A stretch of DNA of 43,198 nucleotides. Origin: Porticoccaceae bacterium. GTDB lineage: Bacteria; Pseudomonadota; Gammaproteobacteria; Pseudomonadales; Porticoccaceae. This document shows, piece after piece, positions 1 to 7,903 of this stretch. Made by a program: the position numbers and the translations under genes. The first letter of the stretch is position 1. Every line of letters begins with the position of its first letter. The DNA is taken from contig JAQWIR010000025.1 in assembly GCA_029248755.1 (NCBI GenBank), forward strand, positions 1 to 43,198. Direction: 5' to 3'. The notes beneath the pieces are model-generated. The model saw only the letters and a list, made by a program, of their open reading frames with translations, made no database searches and was not told where the DNA came from.

Positions 1-174
1 CGGCATCATCCAATCTAGAAGCACTAGATCGGGGTGACGGTCTAAGATAGTTGCATGAGCCTGCTGCGCATTTGACGCCTGCAGTACATTAAAGTCCGCA
101 GCATCGAGAGAGATACTCAGCATTTCTCGAATCGCTGATTCATCATCAACGACCAGTACGGTATGTTTGGGCAT
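1..174 (-). CDS. phoB: PhoB phosphate-regulon response regulator (partial, N-terminus only)
   Basis: This is the first part of a response-regulator receiver domain reading leftward off the window edge. The translation begins MPKHTVLVVDDES and continues through IREMLSISLDAADF to DLVLLDWMMP, which carries the acidic pocket (DD) and the phospho-acceptor Asp of the LLDWM motif. The AIREM and DL(I/V)LLDWM(L/M)P signatures are those of PhoB, the activator that binds Pho boxes when phosphate is low. Its partner kinase PhoR would lie outside the window. I chose the ATG at 174 over the in-frame ATG at 210 because it gives the usual PhoB N-terminal length and has a GAAGAGA-like ribosome site. It also leaves room for a Pho box with a TTTAAT -10 (209-214) in front. 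The winged-helix DNA-binding half is missing, so PhoB identity rests on the receiver sequence and the two Pho boxes nearby. Confidence 0.8.
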   Translation of the reverse strand, partial: MPKHTVLVVDDESAIREMLSISLDAADFNVLQASNAQQAHATILDRHPDLVLLDWMMP

Positions 175-224
175 AAACTCAATCTCTTCTTCCACTTTTT
201 GCCCTCCCATTAAAAAACCTCTTT

Positions 225-242
225 ATGACATAATTGTGACAC
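225..242 (-). promoter_or_regulatory. Pho box upstream of phoB
   Basis: On the minus strand this reads GTGTCACAATTATGTCAT. It has two TGTCA half-sites 11 bases apart, the spacing of the PhoB consensus CTGTCATAWAWCTGTCAY. A TTTAAT hexamer lies at 209-214, ten bases beyond the box, where the -10 element of PhoB-activated promoters sits. This predicts autoactivation of phoB. The half-sites are exact, but the central bases and first base deviate, so it is a weaker match than the box at 845. Confidence 0.6.
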
Positions 243-351: not shown

Positions 352-837
352 ATGAATATTCAGAACAACAGCGCTGTTAGCTTTCACTATAAACTGACCG
401 ACGATGACGGCATTAACATTGATAGCTCAGAAGGCAAAGAGCCTCTTGGCTATTTGCATGGCGCCGGAAATATTATTCCTGGTCTTGAAAAAGCACTGGA
501 AGGTAAGAAAGTAGGTGACTCGCTAACAGTTGCAGTAACCGCAGATGAAGGCTACGGTGAGGTTCAAAAAGAACTCATTCAAGAAGTGCCGCGCGAAGCG
601 TTTCAAGGTATCGATACCATTGAGCTAGGCATGCAATTTGAAGCTCAGACCGGCCAAGGCGGCACTGTGCCAGTCACTGTAATTGCAGTAACAGACGAAA
701 TTGTTACCGTTGATGGTAATCACCCGCTAGCTGGTAAAAACCTTAATTTTGATGTCACTATCGAAGAAGTCCGTGAAGCGTCAGAAGAAGAGTTAGCTCG
801 CGGGCATCTCCACGATTTAGATGTTGAAGAGCAATAA
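352..837 (+). CDS. slyD: FKBP-type peptidyl-prolyl cis-trans isomerase, SlyD-like
   Basis: A 161-residue FKBP-fold prolyl isomerase and chaperone of the cytoplasm. The N-terminal FKBP segment has the LGYLHGAGNIIPGLEKALEGKKVGD core typical of SlyD. An insert-in-flap chaperone domain follows (about residues 70-125, including VPREAF and GNHPLAGK), then the strand LNFDVTIEEVREA. Unlike E. coli SlyD the C-terminal metal-binding tail is very short (GHLHDLDVEEQ, two histidines), so nickel storage is probably reduced; many non-enteric SlyD proteins look like this. The Pho box for the next operon begins only eight bases after the stop, with no terminator in between, so read-through into the arsenic genes is possible. 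Confidence 0.9.
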   Translation: MNIQNNSAVSFHYKLTDDDGINIDSSEGKEPLGYLHGAGNIIPGLEKALEGKKVGDSLTVAVTADEGYGEVQKELIQEVPREAFQGIDTIELGMQFEAQTGQGGTVPVTVIAVTDEIVTVDGNHPLAGKNLNFDVTIEEVREASEEELARGHLHDLDVEEQ

Positions 838-844
838 ATCGAGG

Positions 845-862
845 CTGTCATAAAACTGTCAT
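845..862 (+). promoter_or_regulatory. Pho box (exact consensus) for the GAPDH-arsJ operon
   Basis: The sequence CTGTCATAAAACTGTCAT matches the PhoB-binding consensus CTGTCATAWAWCTGTCAY at every position. It lies in the 68-base gap between slyD and the GAPDH gene, 44 bases before that gene's ATG. A weak -10 (TAACGT, 873-878) lies ten bases downstream, the usual spacing for a PhoB-dependent class II promoter, where PhoB replaces a -35 element. The phoB gene is about 0.7 kb away. The motif is seen directly; the control is inferred. Confidence 0.85.
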
Positions 863-905
863 CTTTTGCGATTAACGTGAAATCTTTTATATATTATGGA
901 ATATT

Positions 906-1919
906 ATGTCGATAAAAGTTGGGATTAATGGGTTCGGTCGCATAGGCCGACTCGCACTTCGTGAATCTTGGGGATGTGACGATTTTGACATTGTGCATAT
1001 CAATGAGATGGCGGGCGATGTTCAAAGTGCAGCACATTTGCTGCGCTTTGATTCTGTTCACGGTCAGTGGGATAAACAAGTTTCTGTCGATAATGGTCAT
1101 TTAATTATTGATAACCATAAAATTAGTTATTCGCAAAACCAAGTAATCTCCGATACAAACTGGCGTTCAGCTGAAGTTGACTTAATTATTGATTGCACAG
1201 GGGTATTTAAAAGCCCTGAGGCACTATCACCCTACTTTGAACAAGGCGTTTCAAAGGTAGTGGTATCTGCGCCTGTTAAAGGCTTTCCTAGAGATCAGGT
1301 ATTAAACGTTGTTATGGGAATTAATGACCATGAATATATAGGTCAGGATATTGTTACAGCCGCGTCATGCACCACCAACTGTATTGCCCCCGTTGTGGAT
1401 GTTATTCATCAGTGTTTTGGTATTTCTCATGGTTCAATGACCACTATCCATGATATGACCAATACCCAAAGTATTATTGATCAGTACCATAAAGATTTAC
1501 GCAGATCCCGTGCTAGTAGCATGTCTTTAATACCCACCAGTACTGGATCTGCAACAGCCATTACCGAAATTTTTCCCGAACTTAAGGGCAAAATCAACGG
1601 TGTAGCGGTGCGTGTCCCCCTAGCTAATGCCTCATTAACCGACTGTGTTTTTGAAGTGGAAAAATCGGTGACTGTTGAAGAGGTAAATTCAGCTCTTAAA
1701 ACCGCGGCAGATGGTCGCCTACAGGGTATTTTGGGCTATGAGGAATTACCTCTTGTTTCTGTCGATTACACCAATGATATCCGTTCAGGTATTGTCGATG
1801 CTCCCTCAACCATGGTGATTAACGACACTCAGGTTAAACTATTAGTCTGGTATGACAATGAAATTGGCTATGTAAACCGAATGATGGAACTCGTGTCTAA
1901 AGTCGCTCTATCGATGTAG
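906..1919 (+). CDS. ArsJ-associated glyceraldehyde-3-phosphate dehydrogenase (arsenate detoxification)
   Basis: A 337-residue GAPDH-family enzyme with the Rossmann motif [13 protein letters not shown] at residues 7-19, catalytic Cys155 in SCTTNC, and the catalytic His182 in TTIHDMTN. The C-terminus has [12 protein letters not shown]. It begins two bases before an arsJ-type gene (1922), the hallmark of the GAPDH/ArsJ arsenate pathway described in Pseudomonas aeruginosa. There this dedicated GAPDH uses arsenate in place of phosphate to make 1-arseno-3-phosphoglycerate, which ArsJ exports and which then falls apart outside. The [20 protein letters not shown] region keeps the C-terminal GAPDH fold. 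The window has no arsR; a Pho box takes the promoter position instead. A plain glycolytic role is possible but unlikely given the tight pairing. Confidence 0.88.
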
Positions 1920-1921
1920 CT

Positions 1922-3109
1922 ATGACGCTTGATTCTGCCGCCAAGCAATATCTTACAATCACCCTAAGTTACTGGGCTTTCACACTCACCGATGGCGCAC
2001 TGCGCATGTTGGTGCTGTTTTTCTTTCATGGCTTGGGTTACTCACCGCTAGAGCTTGCTAGTTTATTTATTCTCTATGAATTTTTTGGCATATTAACCAA
2101 TCTTTATGGCGGCTGGCTGGCTACCCGTATTGGTCTAAATGTTCTCTTGTATATAGGTTTAGGTCTACAAATACTGGCATTGGGTATGCTAACCGTTGAT
2201 CCCTCAATGCTCAGTCTTGTGTATGTGATGATTGCACAGGCAATTTCTGGCGTTGCAAAAGATCTTAATAAAATGAGTGCCAAAAGCAGTATTAAGTTAT
2301 TAATTAGCGATAATCAGCCAGCAAAACTTTACCGTTGGATTGCCCTACTGACGGGATCAAAAAACAGCTTAAAAGGTCTTGGGTTTTTCCTTGGCGGCTT
2401 TTTAATGGCAACTTTTGGCTTTAGCAATAGTCTATTTGCACTCATGGCTTTATTAGCCGTTACACTTTTACTTAGCCTGATATTTTTGCAGCCGCAAACA
2501 ACCACTTTTAAGCCGAAATTTAGCGAAACACTGTCAAAAAGTCGCGATATTAACCTTTTATCTGCCGCACGCTTCTTTTTATTCGGTTCCAGAGATATTT
2601 GGTTTGTAGTGGCGCTACCCGTGTTTCTTCAGAGCCAATTGCAATGGTCACACCTGCAAGTTGGTAGTTTTATGGCTTGCTGGATCATTGGCTATGGTTT
2701 AATTCAAGCACTTACCCCCAAAATTACTCGTAACAACCAGCTACAGGCCCCTAGTGGCTCTGCGCTGACATCTTGGGTGGCAAAATTAGCTCTTGTTCCT
2801 GCTTTAATAGCAGGCGGGCTGGTTTATGGACTAGACCCAGCAATAATTTTAATCATAGGTTTATTCGCCTATGGTGGTATTTTTGCCATCAACTCTAGTA
2901 TCCATTCATTTTTAATTGTGGCTTTTGCACAACGTGACTCTGTCTCTACAGATGTGGGTTTTTACTATATGGCCAATGCGGCAGGGAGATTGGCTGGAAC
3001 AATACTCTCAGGCCTTGTTTATCAACAACAGGGGCTGGCGGCTTGCCTAATTATCTCATCATTAATGGTTATAATTAGCACTATCCTAAGTGCAAAAATT
3101 ACCCGCTAA
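1922..3109 (+). CDS. arsJ: ArsJ organoarsenical efflux MFS transporter
   Basis: A 395-residue inner-membrane protein of the major facilitator superfamily with roughly ten to twelve hydrophobic segments. The N-terminal TLSYWAFTLTDGALRMLVLFFFHGLGYSPLELA and the AQAISGVAKDLNKMSAKSSIK loop are characteristic of ArsJ. In the known system it exports 1-arseno-3-phosphoglycerate made by the partner GAPDH, conferring arsenate resistance. The ATG lies two bases after the GAPDH stop codon, so the genes are cotranscribed and probably translationally coupled, under the Pho box at 845. No terminator is evident in the 78 bases before the next gene. Confidence 0.88.
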   Translation: MTLDSAAKQYLTITLSYWAFTLTDGALRMLVLFFFHGLGYSPLELASLFILYEFFGILTNLYGGWLATRIGLNVLLYIGLGLQILALGMLTVDPSMLSLVYVMIAQAISGVAKDLNKMSAKSSIKLLISDNQPAKLYRWIALLTGSKNSLKGLGFFLGGFLMATFGFSNSLFALMALLAVTLLLSLIFLQPQTTTFKPKFSETLSKSRDINLLSAARFFLFGSRDIWFVVALPVFLQSQLQWSHLQVGSFMACWIIGYGLIQALTPKITRNNQLQAPSGSALTSWVAKLALVPALIAGGLVYGLDPAIILIIGLFAYGGIFAINSSIHSFLIVAFAQRDSVSTDVGFYYMANAAGRLAGTILSGLVYQQQGLAACLIISSLMVIISTILSAKITR

Positions 3110-3187: not shown

Positions 3188-3553
3188 ATGAGTAATGAAG
3201 AAAGTAATGCAATGAGCCCTGATGAGCTTTACCGAGAAGAGAATTTTACCGACCAAAAAACCGGTGCTATTCGCAAGTTAATTCCGGTATTGGCCAATGG
3301 TTCTGACGACCCTGATAGAGCCACTGCATTTTTTGGCTCGGCTCAGGTCATGACTCCTATGGGGGCTATTCCTCTAAATTTCGCTCTAGATGGTGACACT
3401 ATAGGTGAAGCCGCTCAAGACTTTGCCGGTAAAGCAGCAATTGCAGTTGAAGAGGCAGGCAAAGAGCTTGAACGTATGCGTCGAGAACAGGCATCAAAAA
3501 TTGTGGTTCCGGGGCAAGAAGGCAATAACCCAGGCGGCGGCATCATTACTTAG
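3188..3553 (+). CDS. Conserved cytoplasmic protein of unknown function
   Basis: A 121-residue soluble protein with no signal peptide or membrane segment. An acidic N-terminus (EESNAMSPDELYREENFTDQKTGAIRKLIPV) is followed by a central part that looks beta-rich (AFFGSAQVMTPMGAIPLNFALDG), a helix of about 35 residues (IGEAAQDFAGKAAIAVEEAGKELERMRREQ) and a Gly-rich C-terminal tail. I recall similar small 'cytoplasmic protein' homologues in other proteobacteria (LYREE, GxIRxL, QxMTPxGxxP), all uncharacterised, and assign no role. It follows arsJ by 78 bases and its last eight bases overlap the 3' end of the convergent NYN gene. Confidence 0.75.
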   Translation: MSNEESNAMSPDELYREENFTDQKTGAIRKLIPVLANGSDDPDRATAFFGSAQVMTPMGAIPLNFALDGDTIGEAAQDFAGKAAIAVEEAGKELERMRREQASKIVVPGQEGNNPGGGIIT

Positions 3554-7103: not shown

Positions 7104-7367
7104 TTGGAAAACTTGAACCCAGTCATCGTTTATGGCACTAGATTCTGCCCTTACTGTGTTGCTGCAAAGCAACTACTTGACGCAAAAGGCCTTGTGTATC
7201 AGTATATAGCGGTTGATAACGATCATGATCTTCGAGAGAATGTATCTAAGCGGAGCGGTCAGAGAACAGTTCCACAAATTTGGATTGGCGAGCAACATAT
7301 AGGTGGCTTTACCGATCTACGAAAACTGGCATTAAATGGCGATTTAGATCGCTTACTCAATGTCTAA
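7104..7367 (+). CDS. grxC: Glutaredoxin 3 (GrxC)
   Basis: An 87-residue thioredoxin-fold glutaredoxin. The redox motif CPYC (residues 15-18) lies after strand VIVYGTRF, followed by the cis-proline loop RTVPQIWIG and GGFTDLRKLALNGDLDRLL. It reduces disulfides at the expense of glutathione in the cytoplasm. The frame starts with TTG at 7104, and a second in-frame TTG (7113) would give MNPVIVYG; no ATG is available nearby, so initiation is at a rare start codon. It sits between yibN and secB in what appears to be one operon. Confidence 0.92.
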   Translation: MENLNPVIVYGTRFCPYCVAAKQLLDAKGLVYQYIAVDNDHDLRENVSKRSGQRTVPQIWIGEQHIGGFTDLRKLALNGDLDRLLNV

Positions 7368-7411
7368 TAAAACTTAATAATAATCAAAAGCTAATTTTTA
7401 AGGGTTTTACC

Positions 7412-7903
7412 ATGGCTAAGAAAGAAACAGAAAAAAAACAAGATGCTGAACAACCACAATTTTCTATTCAGCGTGTTTACCTAAAAGATTTATCTTTTGA
7501 AACACCTCAAGGTCCTGCTGCATTCCAAAAAAAATGGCAGCCAAAGGTTAACCAAGACCTCAATACTAAGACTGCCGAAGTAGAGGAGGGTATTTTCGAG
7601 GTTGCTCTTCGCGTTACTATTACCATGGCAGATGGCGAAGATACAATTTACGTTGTTGAAGCCGAACAAGCGGGTCTATTTAATATTAAGGGCTTTCCTG
7701 AAGAGCAATTGCCTCAAATTCTCAATACAACCTGCCCTGGTATATTATTTCCCTACCTTCGCGAGACATTAGATAACGTGGTGACTAAGGGCTCGTTTCC
7801 AGCTCTATTACTTCCACCTATTAATTTTGACGCACTATTTGCAAGCGCTCTACAACAAGCCACAGAAGAAAAAAATAAAGAGAGTGATGGTACAAAGCAC
7901 TGA
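7412..7903 (+). CDS. secB: SecB protein-export chaperone
   Basis: A 163-residue cytoplasmic tetrameric chaperone that keeps preproteins unfolded and hands them to SecA. Signature segments are FSIQRVYLKDLSFETP, the substrate-groove strands (VEEGIFEVALRVTI) and the C-terminal CPGILFPYLRETLDNVVTKGSFPALLLPPINFDALF. The start is the ATG at 7412, with AAGGG eight bases upstream; a longer open frame running back into grxC is not coding. The usual SecA-binding zinc tail of enteric SecB is absent here; the end is a short charged tail. A strong terminator follows. Confidence 0.95.
   Translation: MAKKETEKKQDAEQPQFSIQRVYLKDLSFETPQGPAAFQKKWQPKVNQDLNTKTAEVEEGIFEVALRVTITMADGEDTIYVVEAEQAGLFNIKGFPEEQLPQILNTTCPGILFPYLRETLDNVVTKGSFPALLLPPINFDALFASALQQATEEKNKESDGTKH

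What the first reader, a model, noticed from the sequence alone, without database searches (positions are those of the whole stretch)
845..3109. Arsenate-detoxification operon (GAPDH-arsJ) under an exact Pho box, next to phoB
Known gapdh-arsJ pairs usually sit in ars operons controlled by ArsR. Here there is no arsR in the window. The promoter position holds CTGTCATAAAACTGTCAT, a full match to the PhoB consensus, and phoB is about 0.7 kb away. Phosphate starvation raises high-affinity phosphate uptake, which also lets in arsenate, so inducing arsenate export through PhoB would be an anticipatory defence, plausible in phosphate-poor seawater. The site and gene pair are seen directly; the regulatory logic is inferred.
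Basis: partly seen in the sequence, partly recalled or inferred. Interest (0 to 1): 0.75.

Follow-up and report, generated by a model that had tools for sequence, protein, structure and literature searches.

The report
Arsenate-export operon under phosphate-starvation switch
In this uncultured bacterium, and in some other gammaproteobacteria, the two genes that pump out arsenate appear to be switched on by the phosphate-starvation regulator PhoB instead of the usual arsenic sensor, so that the cell would arm itself when it opens the phosphate uptake route through which arsenate enters.

Summary
Confirmed and extended. Window 906-3109 encodes an ArsJ-associated GAPDH and ArsJ, both above NCBIfam cut-offs. 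The 18-mer at 845-862 is the only exact CTGTCATNNNNCTGTCAT in the 1.65 Mb assembly and is letter-identical to a Pho box of E. coli pstS. phoB, cut by the contig end, continues on another contig with phoR and pst genes. No arsR is linked; the assembly's only ArsR-family match is a methyltransferase fusion.

A matrix trained on pstS promoters alone finds boxes before gapdh in 13 of 37 same-genus operons (p<=0.01). In a class-wide sample 10 of 47 operons pass a box-plus-minus-10 threshold set at 1% of controls: 9 of 25 without linked arsR, 1 of 22 with it (p=0.012). A -10 hexamer sits exactly 10 nt after the box, as in E. coli pstS; 0 of 5000 shuffles reach this.

Best reading: PhoB-activated arsenate export, with Pho control in place of ArsR. 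Against: 18 of 37 same-genus operons miss that threshold, and nothing was measured. Low phosphate is already reported to induce arsenate genes elsewhere; direct Pho-box wiring of gapdh-arsJ is a new variant.

The parts
1..210 (-). 5' part of phoB (70 codons; cut by the contig end, continues on contig C29 with phoR, a porin gene, a PstS-family gene, pstC and pstA)
   Evidence: TIGR02154 PhoB best match; C29 begins with the same 141 bases; full-length-minus-10-aa PhoB on C29 325.5 bits against cut-off 296.2, PhoR 337.6 against 334.2, PstC 281.3 against 196.5, PstA 225.5 against 193.5; PstS-family match 135.3 is below its cut-off of 206.6 but PBP_like_2 is above
225..242 (-). Pho-box-like site before phoB (3 mismatches), possible autoregulation
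   Evidence: on its own not above chance, but in the genus all 10 of the 209 non-gapdh control upstream regions that score 11 or more begin with the PhoB N-terminus
352..837 (+). FKBP-type peptidyl-prolyl isomerase gene; chromosomal neighbour, beside gapdh-arsJ in 36 of 37 same-genus loci; not thought to be part of the arsenate system
   Evidence: PF00254 above cut-off; synteny
845..862 (+). Pho box CTGTCATAAAACTGTCAT, proposed PhoB site in the -35 position
   Evidence: exact; identical 18-mer in E. coli K-12 pstS promoter; matrix p = 0 of 500 shuffles
873..878 (+). Proposed -10 hexamer TAACGT, 10 nt after the box (TATTTT, TAATTT, TAATTT, TAACTT at this place in G035, G030, G060, G042)
866..895 (+). 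Overlapping sigma70-like match TTGCGA-18-TATATT, a possible basal promoter; such matches are not above chance here
   Evidence: 3 found, 6.7 expected in shuffles
906..1919 (+). ArsJ-associated glyceraldehyde-3-phosphate dehydrogenase
   Evidence: NF033735 531.3 bits, cut-off 450
1922..3109 (+). ArsJ, MFS-type efflux permease for arsenate / 1-arseno-3-phosphoglycerate
   Evidence: NF033734 559.1 bits, cut-off 400

Best explanation
gapdh-arsJ is a two-gene arsenate-export operon transcribed from a PhoB-dependent promoter. When phosphate is scarce, PhoR phosphorylates PhoB, PhoB~P binds 845-862 in the -35 position and recruits RNA polymerase to a -10 at 873-878. The same signal turns on the pst uptake genes, the route that also admits arsenate. 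GAPDH would then form 1-arseno-3-phosphoglycerate and ArsJ would expel it (or free arsenate, as reported for V. cholerae). Control is feed-forward: export is made together with uptake, without a dedicated arsenic sensor. Shown: genes, box, spacing, linkage to phoBR and pst, absence of a linked arsR, recurrence in relatives. Inferred: PhoB binding, induction by low phosphate, arsenate as substrate in this organism.
For: Exact box, the only one in the assembly, identical to E. coli pstS. Of the 30 columns from the box to base 874, 27 are invariant in six near relatives, against 10 of the next 34. PhoB 53% identical to E. coli PhoB over 219 residues and sharing RTVDVHIRRLRKA. pstS-trained matrix: p<=0.01 in 13 of 37 same-genus operons. 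At score 11 or more: gapdh upstream regions 13/37 (genus), 4/26 (other genera of the family), 9/68 (named genomes), 10/47 (class sample), against 9/658 control upstream regions and, on the opposite strand, 0, 0, 0 and 1. -10 hexamer at exactly 10 nt in 7 of 12 same-genus and 9 of 22 other distinct boxes; 0-2 at any other spacing from 4 to 16; 0 of 5000 shuffles reach the count, in either set. No arsR in 37 of 37 same-genus fetched stretches; one ArsR-family match in the assembly, a fusion. Three further GAPDH-family genes in the assembly, so this one need not be the glycolytic enzyme.
Against: No expression, binding or phenotype data. 18 of 37 same-genus operons fail the 1% threshold and 14 of 37 the 5% threshold of the combined model; a nine-genome subclade beside phoBR has no recognisable box and carries another conserved element instead. 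On the gapdh-arsJ tree the box state needs 7 changes. The reversed matrix reaches the score of 11 in 4 of 37 same-genus regions, so AT-rich sequence adds some false matches there. Some boxed operons elsewhere also have a linked arsR (3 of 4 in other genera of the family, 2 of 7 named, 1 of 10 class). Scanning spacings 6-14 with the combined model does not single out 10 by itself. The window's own -10, TAACGT, matches TATAAT at only 3 of 6 positions. Several other same-genus genomes have more ArsR-family matches (up to 7) elsewhere (list cut), which could act from a distance.
Confidence: 0.77

Rival explanations
1. The operon is PhoB-controlled, but its role in starvation is phosphate economy rather than arsenate defence: the extra GAPDH and the permease would alter glycolytic flux or export a phospho-compound when phosphate is low.
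For: The same box evidence fits; GAPDH uses phosphate as a substrate (established biochemistry, recalled).
Against: Both proteins exceed the cut-offs of the ArsJ-system families, and gapdh-arsJ homologues are needed for arsenate resistance in V. cholerae and Halomonas GFAJ-1 (passages of PMC9601151 and PMC5930303). Other GAPDH-family genes exist in the assembly.
Confidence: 0.1
2. Dual or remote control: PhoB is one input, but an arsenic-responsive regulator encoded elsewhere (an ArsR-family protein, for example the methyltransferase fusion, or one missed in the incomplete assembly) also controls the operon.
For: Assembly 88.7% complete; other same-genus genomes carry free-standing ArsR-family proteins elsewhere; several boxed operons outside the genus keep arsR.
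Against: Only one ArsR-family match in this assembly, a 331-aa fusion. The box is followed directly by the -10, and I looked for, but did not model, no ArsR operator.
Confidence: 0.09
3. The box is a chance or vestigial match and the operon is expressed constitutively from another promoter.
For: A sigma70-like match overlaps at 866-895; part of the genus lacks a box.
Against: It is the best match in the assembly, is conserved while the bases further downstream diverge, recurs in other lineages and has a -10 at the right distance; promoter-like matches in the region are fewer than in shuffles.
Confidence: 0.04

Closest known systems
gapdh-arsJ of Pseudomonas aeruginosa DK2 (Chen et al. 2016, seen only as cited) and the V. 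cholerae var operon (PMC9601151, passages)
   Same: ArsJ-associated GAPDH followed by the ArsJ permease; arsenate handled without reduction and ArsB
   Different: The var operon is driven by one arsenate-inducible promoter upstream of its own arsR, is constitutive without ArsR, and has a phosphatase gene varH; here there is no arsR and no gene between gapdh and arsJ, and a Pho box precedes gapdh
Pho regulon promoters, E. coli pstS type (sequence fetched)
   Same: Identical 18-bp box; -10 hexamer 10 nt after the last half-site
   Different: E. coli pstS has tandem boxes (CTGTCATAAAACTGTCAT then a second pair); the window has one; the gene product is an arsenate exporter, not a phosphate-acquisition function
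PhoBR control of arsenite oxidase aioBA in Halomonas sp. HAL1 (PMC4563254, abstract and passages)
   Same: PhoB controls an arsenic gene through a Pho box under low phosphate; binding shown there by one-hybrid and EMSA
   Different: Arsenite oxidation, not arsenate export; that box (TTGACACTCCATTGTTAT) is a weak match on the antisense strand near the start codon; the promoter there also responds to arsenite
Nodularia spumigena CCY9414 arsR-sphX-gapdh-arsJ cluster (PMC9846622 and PMC3610870, passages)
   Same: ArsJ-associated GAPDH rises under phosphate limitation (log2 change 1.57 at day 7, 2.41 at day 14) and ArsJ at day 14 (0.29, then 1.20)
   Different: Cyanobacterium with arsR in the cluster (arsR falls, -1.21 and -1.14); the passages name no Pho box; the authors say that most arsenate-related genes did not change clearly
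Arsenic islands with pst genes (PMC3834237 and Halomonas GFAJ-1 in PMC5930303, passages)
   Same: Arsenic genes beside phosphate-uptake genes; the GFAJ-1 island holds pst and an mfs1-mfs2-gapdh operon
   Different: Islands carry several ars or aio genes and an additional pst copy; here gapdh-arsJ alone sits beside phoBR and the one PstS place found in the assembly, with recurring same-genus neighbours

Membership tests
GAPDH-ArsJ arsenate-export pair | GAPDH of the ArsJ-associated family | tested here: met
   NF033735 531.3 bits against 450
GAPDH-ArsJ arsenate-export pair | ArsJ permease directly beside it | tested here: met
   NF033734 559.1 bits against 400, 2 bp after gapdh
GAPDH-ArsJ arsenate-export pair | Confers arsenate resistance / export | not testable with these tools
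   needs an experiment
Pho regulon (PhoB-activated promoter) | Pho box: two 7-bp direct repeats, 4-bp spacer | tested here: met
   exact at 845-862
Pho regulon (PhoB-activated promoter) | -10 hexamer at the E. coli pstS distance (10 nt), box in place of -35 | tested here: met
   distance exact; in the window the hexamer itself is weak (TAACGT); relatives TATTTT, TAATTT, TAACTT; set-wide test
Pho regulon (PhoB-activated promoter) | PhoB with the matching DNA-binding region in the same genome | tested here: met
Pho regulon (PhoB-activated promoter) | PhoB binding and induction at low phosphate | not testable with these tools
   needs an experiment
ArsR-controlled ars operon | arsR in or beside the operon | tested here: not met
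   none in window; one ArsR-family match in the assembly, an unlinked fusion
ArsR-controlled ars operon | Induction by arsenic through an unlinked ArsR | not testable with these tools
   needs an experiment
Arsenic island | Several clustered ars or aio genes with an additional pst or phn copy | tested here: not met
   no ACR3 or ArsB in the assembly; one PstS place; window genes up to 18385 scanned by family, except the short ORF 7280-7903, with no other ars family seen; aio genes not searched genome-wide

The most novel reading that the evidence does not exclude
Across Gammaproteobacteria, gapdh-arsJ operons fall into two regulatory classes: the textbook arsenic-sensing class (ArsR) and a recurrent class wired directly into the Pho regulon, in which PhoB has replaced ArsR more than once and arsenate export is a built-in, feed-forward companion of high-affinity phosphate uptake. 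In one Porticoccaceae-like genus the operon has settled beside phoBR.
Probability: 0.65. Interest if true: 0.72.

Novelty: new variant of a known kind. Interest (0 to 1): 0.62.

Why it matters
Arsenate toxicity depends on the arsenate/phosphate ratio, which rises when phosphate is scarce; PMC6426599 says so for the ocean and cites ratios above 50 in the Sargasso Sea (passages). An arsenate exporter governed by phosphate status rather than by arsenic would make arsenic defence a standing part of the phosphate-starvation response, would mean that arsJ transcripts in the field can report phosphate stress rather than arsenic exposure, and would be a clean case of a resistance operon moved from a sensor of the poison to a sensor of the condition that lets the poison in. 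It can be tested directly with a promoter reporter in a laboratory strain.

Tried and rejected
Chance match: rejected for the exact site but accepted for the other sites of the window with 3 mismatches. Box belonging to phoB rather than gapdh: rejected; an FKBP gene lies between, and boxes before gapdh recur in class-sample operons where no phoB match was seen in the fetched stretch. arsR hidden in the FKBP-gapdh gap of other same-genus members: rejected; the larger gaps often hold a 55-60 aa minus-strand ORF instead. Four- and five-mismatch sites at about -250 to -292 in the box-less subclade lie at the start codon of that ORF and were discarded. ArsC matches (two in this assembly): one is above the TIGR00014 cut-off, the other is an ArsC-family reductase / Spx-like protein; I could not tell a dedicated arsenate reductase from a household homologue, so no argument rests on it. 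Weak ArsB matches in G034, G036, G037 and G051, all in the box-less subclade, were not followed. ArsP, ArsK, ArsM and aio genes were not searched. Gene context of three boxed named loci (L033, L066, L075) showed no phosphate or arsenic family in the 8 proteins scanned.

Rows dropped before counts: L159 and L160 (no GAPDH on the contig); L095-L124 (refetched with longer flanks as L161-L190); of the 80 named loci, L015-L020 (same genus, counted under G handles; L015-L018, L055 likewise) and L025, L055, L072, L074, L079 (no GAPDH found); L061, L169 and L174 (under 150 bases before GAPDH, or GAPDH cut); 12 class loci without GAPDH and 1 with GAPDH at the edge. Of 72 class-wide ArsJ matches above cut-off other than the window's own, stretches of 60 were fetched and 47 analysed. 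Relatedness inside the class and named sets was not corrected for.

Full report
What is there. The window is a whole contig (C11) of a 1.65 Mb, 88.7% complete assembly of 44 contigs. The nearest named record by ArsJ is Cellvibrionales bacterium UBA7375 (98% identical), followed by Cellvibrionales/Porticoccaceae MAGs. On the + strand run an FKBP-type isomerase (352-837), a GAPDH of the ArsJ-associated family (906-1919) and ArsJ (1922-3109); the last two exceed curated cut-offs. On the minus strand the contig starts inside phoB. Its first 141 bases equal the start of contig C29, reversed; there phoB continues, followed by phoR, a porin gene on the other strand, a PstS-family gene, pstC and pstA. 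PhoB, PhoR, PstC and PstA exceed their cut-offs; the PstS-family match does not (135.3 against 206.6) but its Pfam domain does. The operon therefore sits about 0.7 kb from the phosphate-regulon control genes and close to phosphate uptake genes.

The box. CTGTCATAAAACTGTCAT (845-862) is the only exact consensus match in the assembly; the only 1-mismatch site lies before pstS. The same 18 letters occur in the E. coli K-12 pstS promoter, where the last half-site (CTGTCAC) is followed by 10 nt and TATTTT. In the window the box is followed by 10 nt and TAACGT; in relatives by 10 nt and TATTTT (G035), TAATTT (G030, G060) or TAACTT (G042). The box is exact in 4 of the 6 members of the window's own clade, has 1 mismatch in G060 and 3 in G042. 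In an alignment of these six, 27 of the 30 columns from the box to window base 874 are invariant, against 10 of the following 34. PhoB of this genome is 53% identical to E. coli PhoB over 219 residues and shares the stretch RTVDVHIRRLRKA; that this is the recognition helix is recalled.

Test in the genus. Of 50 same-genus genomes held, 38 have ArsJ and 37 have a readable gapdh. FKBP lies beside gapdh-arsJ in 36 of 37 and phoB in the fetched stretch in 33 of 37; of the other four, two are near a contig end (G035, G014) and two (G042, G053) have FKBP but no phoB in about 3.3 kb before it. None of 37 has an ArsR-like ORF in the fetched stretch, though five have under 1.5 kb before gapdh. A matrix trained on 15 distinct pstS boxes from 30 genomes gives p<=0.01 in 13 of 37 and p<=0.05 in 15 of 37; 13 of these 15 lie at -61 to -74 from the start codon. 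The combined model (box, 10 nt, -10) passes a threshold set at 1% of 658 other-gene upstream regions in 19 of 37, and a 5% threshold in 23 of 37. Among 209 same-genus control regions, the 10 that score 11 or more all precede proteins that begin like PhoB, a positive control found blind. Against the reading: a nine-genome subclade, all beside phoB, has no recognisable box, the box state needs 7 changes on the gapdh-arsJ tree, and the reversed matrix scores 11 or more in 4 of 37 regions.

Outside the genus. In other genera of the family 24 of 27 operons have arsR within 1.5 kb, and 4 of 26 pass the combined threshold, three of them with arsR. Of 68 operons from named genomes 7 pass. In a class-wide sample of 369 genomes, 73 including the window's have ArsJ above cut-off; 60 loci were fetched and 47 were analysable. 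Of these 10 pass, against 1% expected (binomial p 4e-11): 9 of 25 without linked arsR (one of the nine has an arsR 2.3 kb downstream) and 1 of 22 with it (Fisher p=0.012). In the named set the same comparison is 5 of 38 against 2 of 30 (p=0.45), so the link with missing arsR rests on the class sample and the genus. With boxes chosen without regard to the -10, a -10-like hexamer occurs at exactly 10 nt in 9 of 22 distinct boxes outside the genus and 7 of 12 inside. At other spacings from 4 to 16 nt the count is 0 to 2, and 0 of 5000 shuffles reach the observed value in either set. I take this as the strongest evidence that these are PhoB-type promoters, because the -10 was not used to find them. 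In contrast, scoring box and -10 together at spacings 6-14 did not single out 10, because the box dominates the score.

Other arsenic genes. ACR3: none above cut-off in 50 same-genus genomes. ArsB: none in this assembly, weak matches in 4 of 50. The assembly's one ArsR-family match is a methyltransferase fusion; other same-genus genomes have up to 7 ArsR-family matches. Two ArsC-family proteins are present. Three further GAPDH-family genes are present. gapdh-arsJ is thus the only arsenic exporter found among the families I searched.

Mechanism. I take the operon to be switched on by PhoB~P at low phosphate together with pst, so that arsenate taken in by the high-affinity system is turned into 1-arseno-3-phosphoglycerate by GAPDH and expelled by ArsJ; the V. 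cholerae study favours extrusion of free arsenate (passages). Shown: genes, site, spacing, linkage, recurrence. Inferred: binding, induction, substrate.

Literature. Searches of the held library: arsJ + phosphate starvation + PhoB + arsenate, 0 papers; arsenate + Pho box + arsenic resistance + phosphate limitation, 0; arsJ + Pho regulon, 1, where passages show the two terms unrelated; arsJ + phosphate starvation, 2, one looked at, likewise unrelated, the other seen in the listing only; arsJ + PhoB, 1. The last is the Nodularia study, whose table shows the ArsJ-associated GAPDH and, at day 14, ArsJ rising under phosphate limitation in a cyanobacterium with arsR in the cluster (passages). SAR11 arsC is reported as 2.3-fold up in P-starved cells (passage of PMC6426599). 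PhoB binding to an arsenic promoter is shown for Halomonas aioBA (passages). Broader searches were read as listings apart from the papers named here and PMC12206446, PMC5111396, PMC10119275 and PMC1906773 (passages), which add no gapdh-arsJ regulation. So the physiological idea has precedents, and within these searches I found no report of a Pho box or PhoB control for gapdh-arsJ in proteobacteria; most subscription papers are not in the library.

Noticed in passing
about -76 to -123 from the gapdh start in L128, L132, L133, L136, L137, L138, L147, L149, L152, L153, L182, L183, L186, L187, L189, L190: Conserved element around TGCAAAATACTGTG (with variants) in 16 of 37 same-genus gapdh promoters, including all nine of the box-less subclade; the main form is in 0 of 145 loci outside the genus and none of the window's clade. 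It may be the other subclade's promoter or the site of another regulator.
   Followed up: partly
between FKBP and gapdh in many same-genus loci, e.g. L132 -445 to -278 from gapdh, minus strand: A conserved 55-60 aa ORF with membrane-like sequence (ends ...SE(I/F/L)xPxFD) on the opposite strand; absent from the window's clade.
   Followed up: no
window 3188-3553, +: 121-aa ORF of no known family directly after arsJ, present at the same place in 36 of 37 same-genus loci (the 37th ends in arsJ) and 70% or more identical, above ArsJ itself in most. Possibly co-transcribed.
   Followed up: partly
G000 contig C22 (L225:457-1452, minus): 331-aa fusion of an ArsR/SmtB-type DNA-binding domain with a methyltransferase, the only ArsR-family match in the assembly; similar ~340-aa frames recur in other same-genus genomes.
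   Followed up: partly
G034, G036, G037, G051: The only four same-genus genomes with an ArsB-family (PF02040) match all belong to the subclade without a Pho box before gapdh; the matches are weak.
   Followed up: no
L086 and L092 (Vreelandella, Halomonas): pst genes lie a few kb before gapdh-arsJ, with no arsR found in L086 and arsR after arsJ in L092; in L092 a box ATGTCATAAAGCTGTCAT precedes a neighbouring ORF.
   Followed up: no
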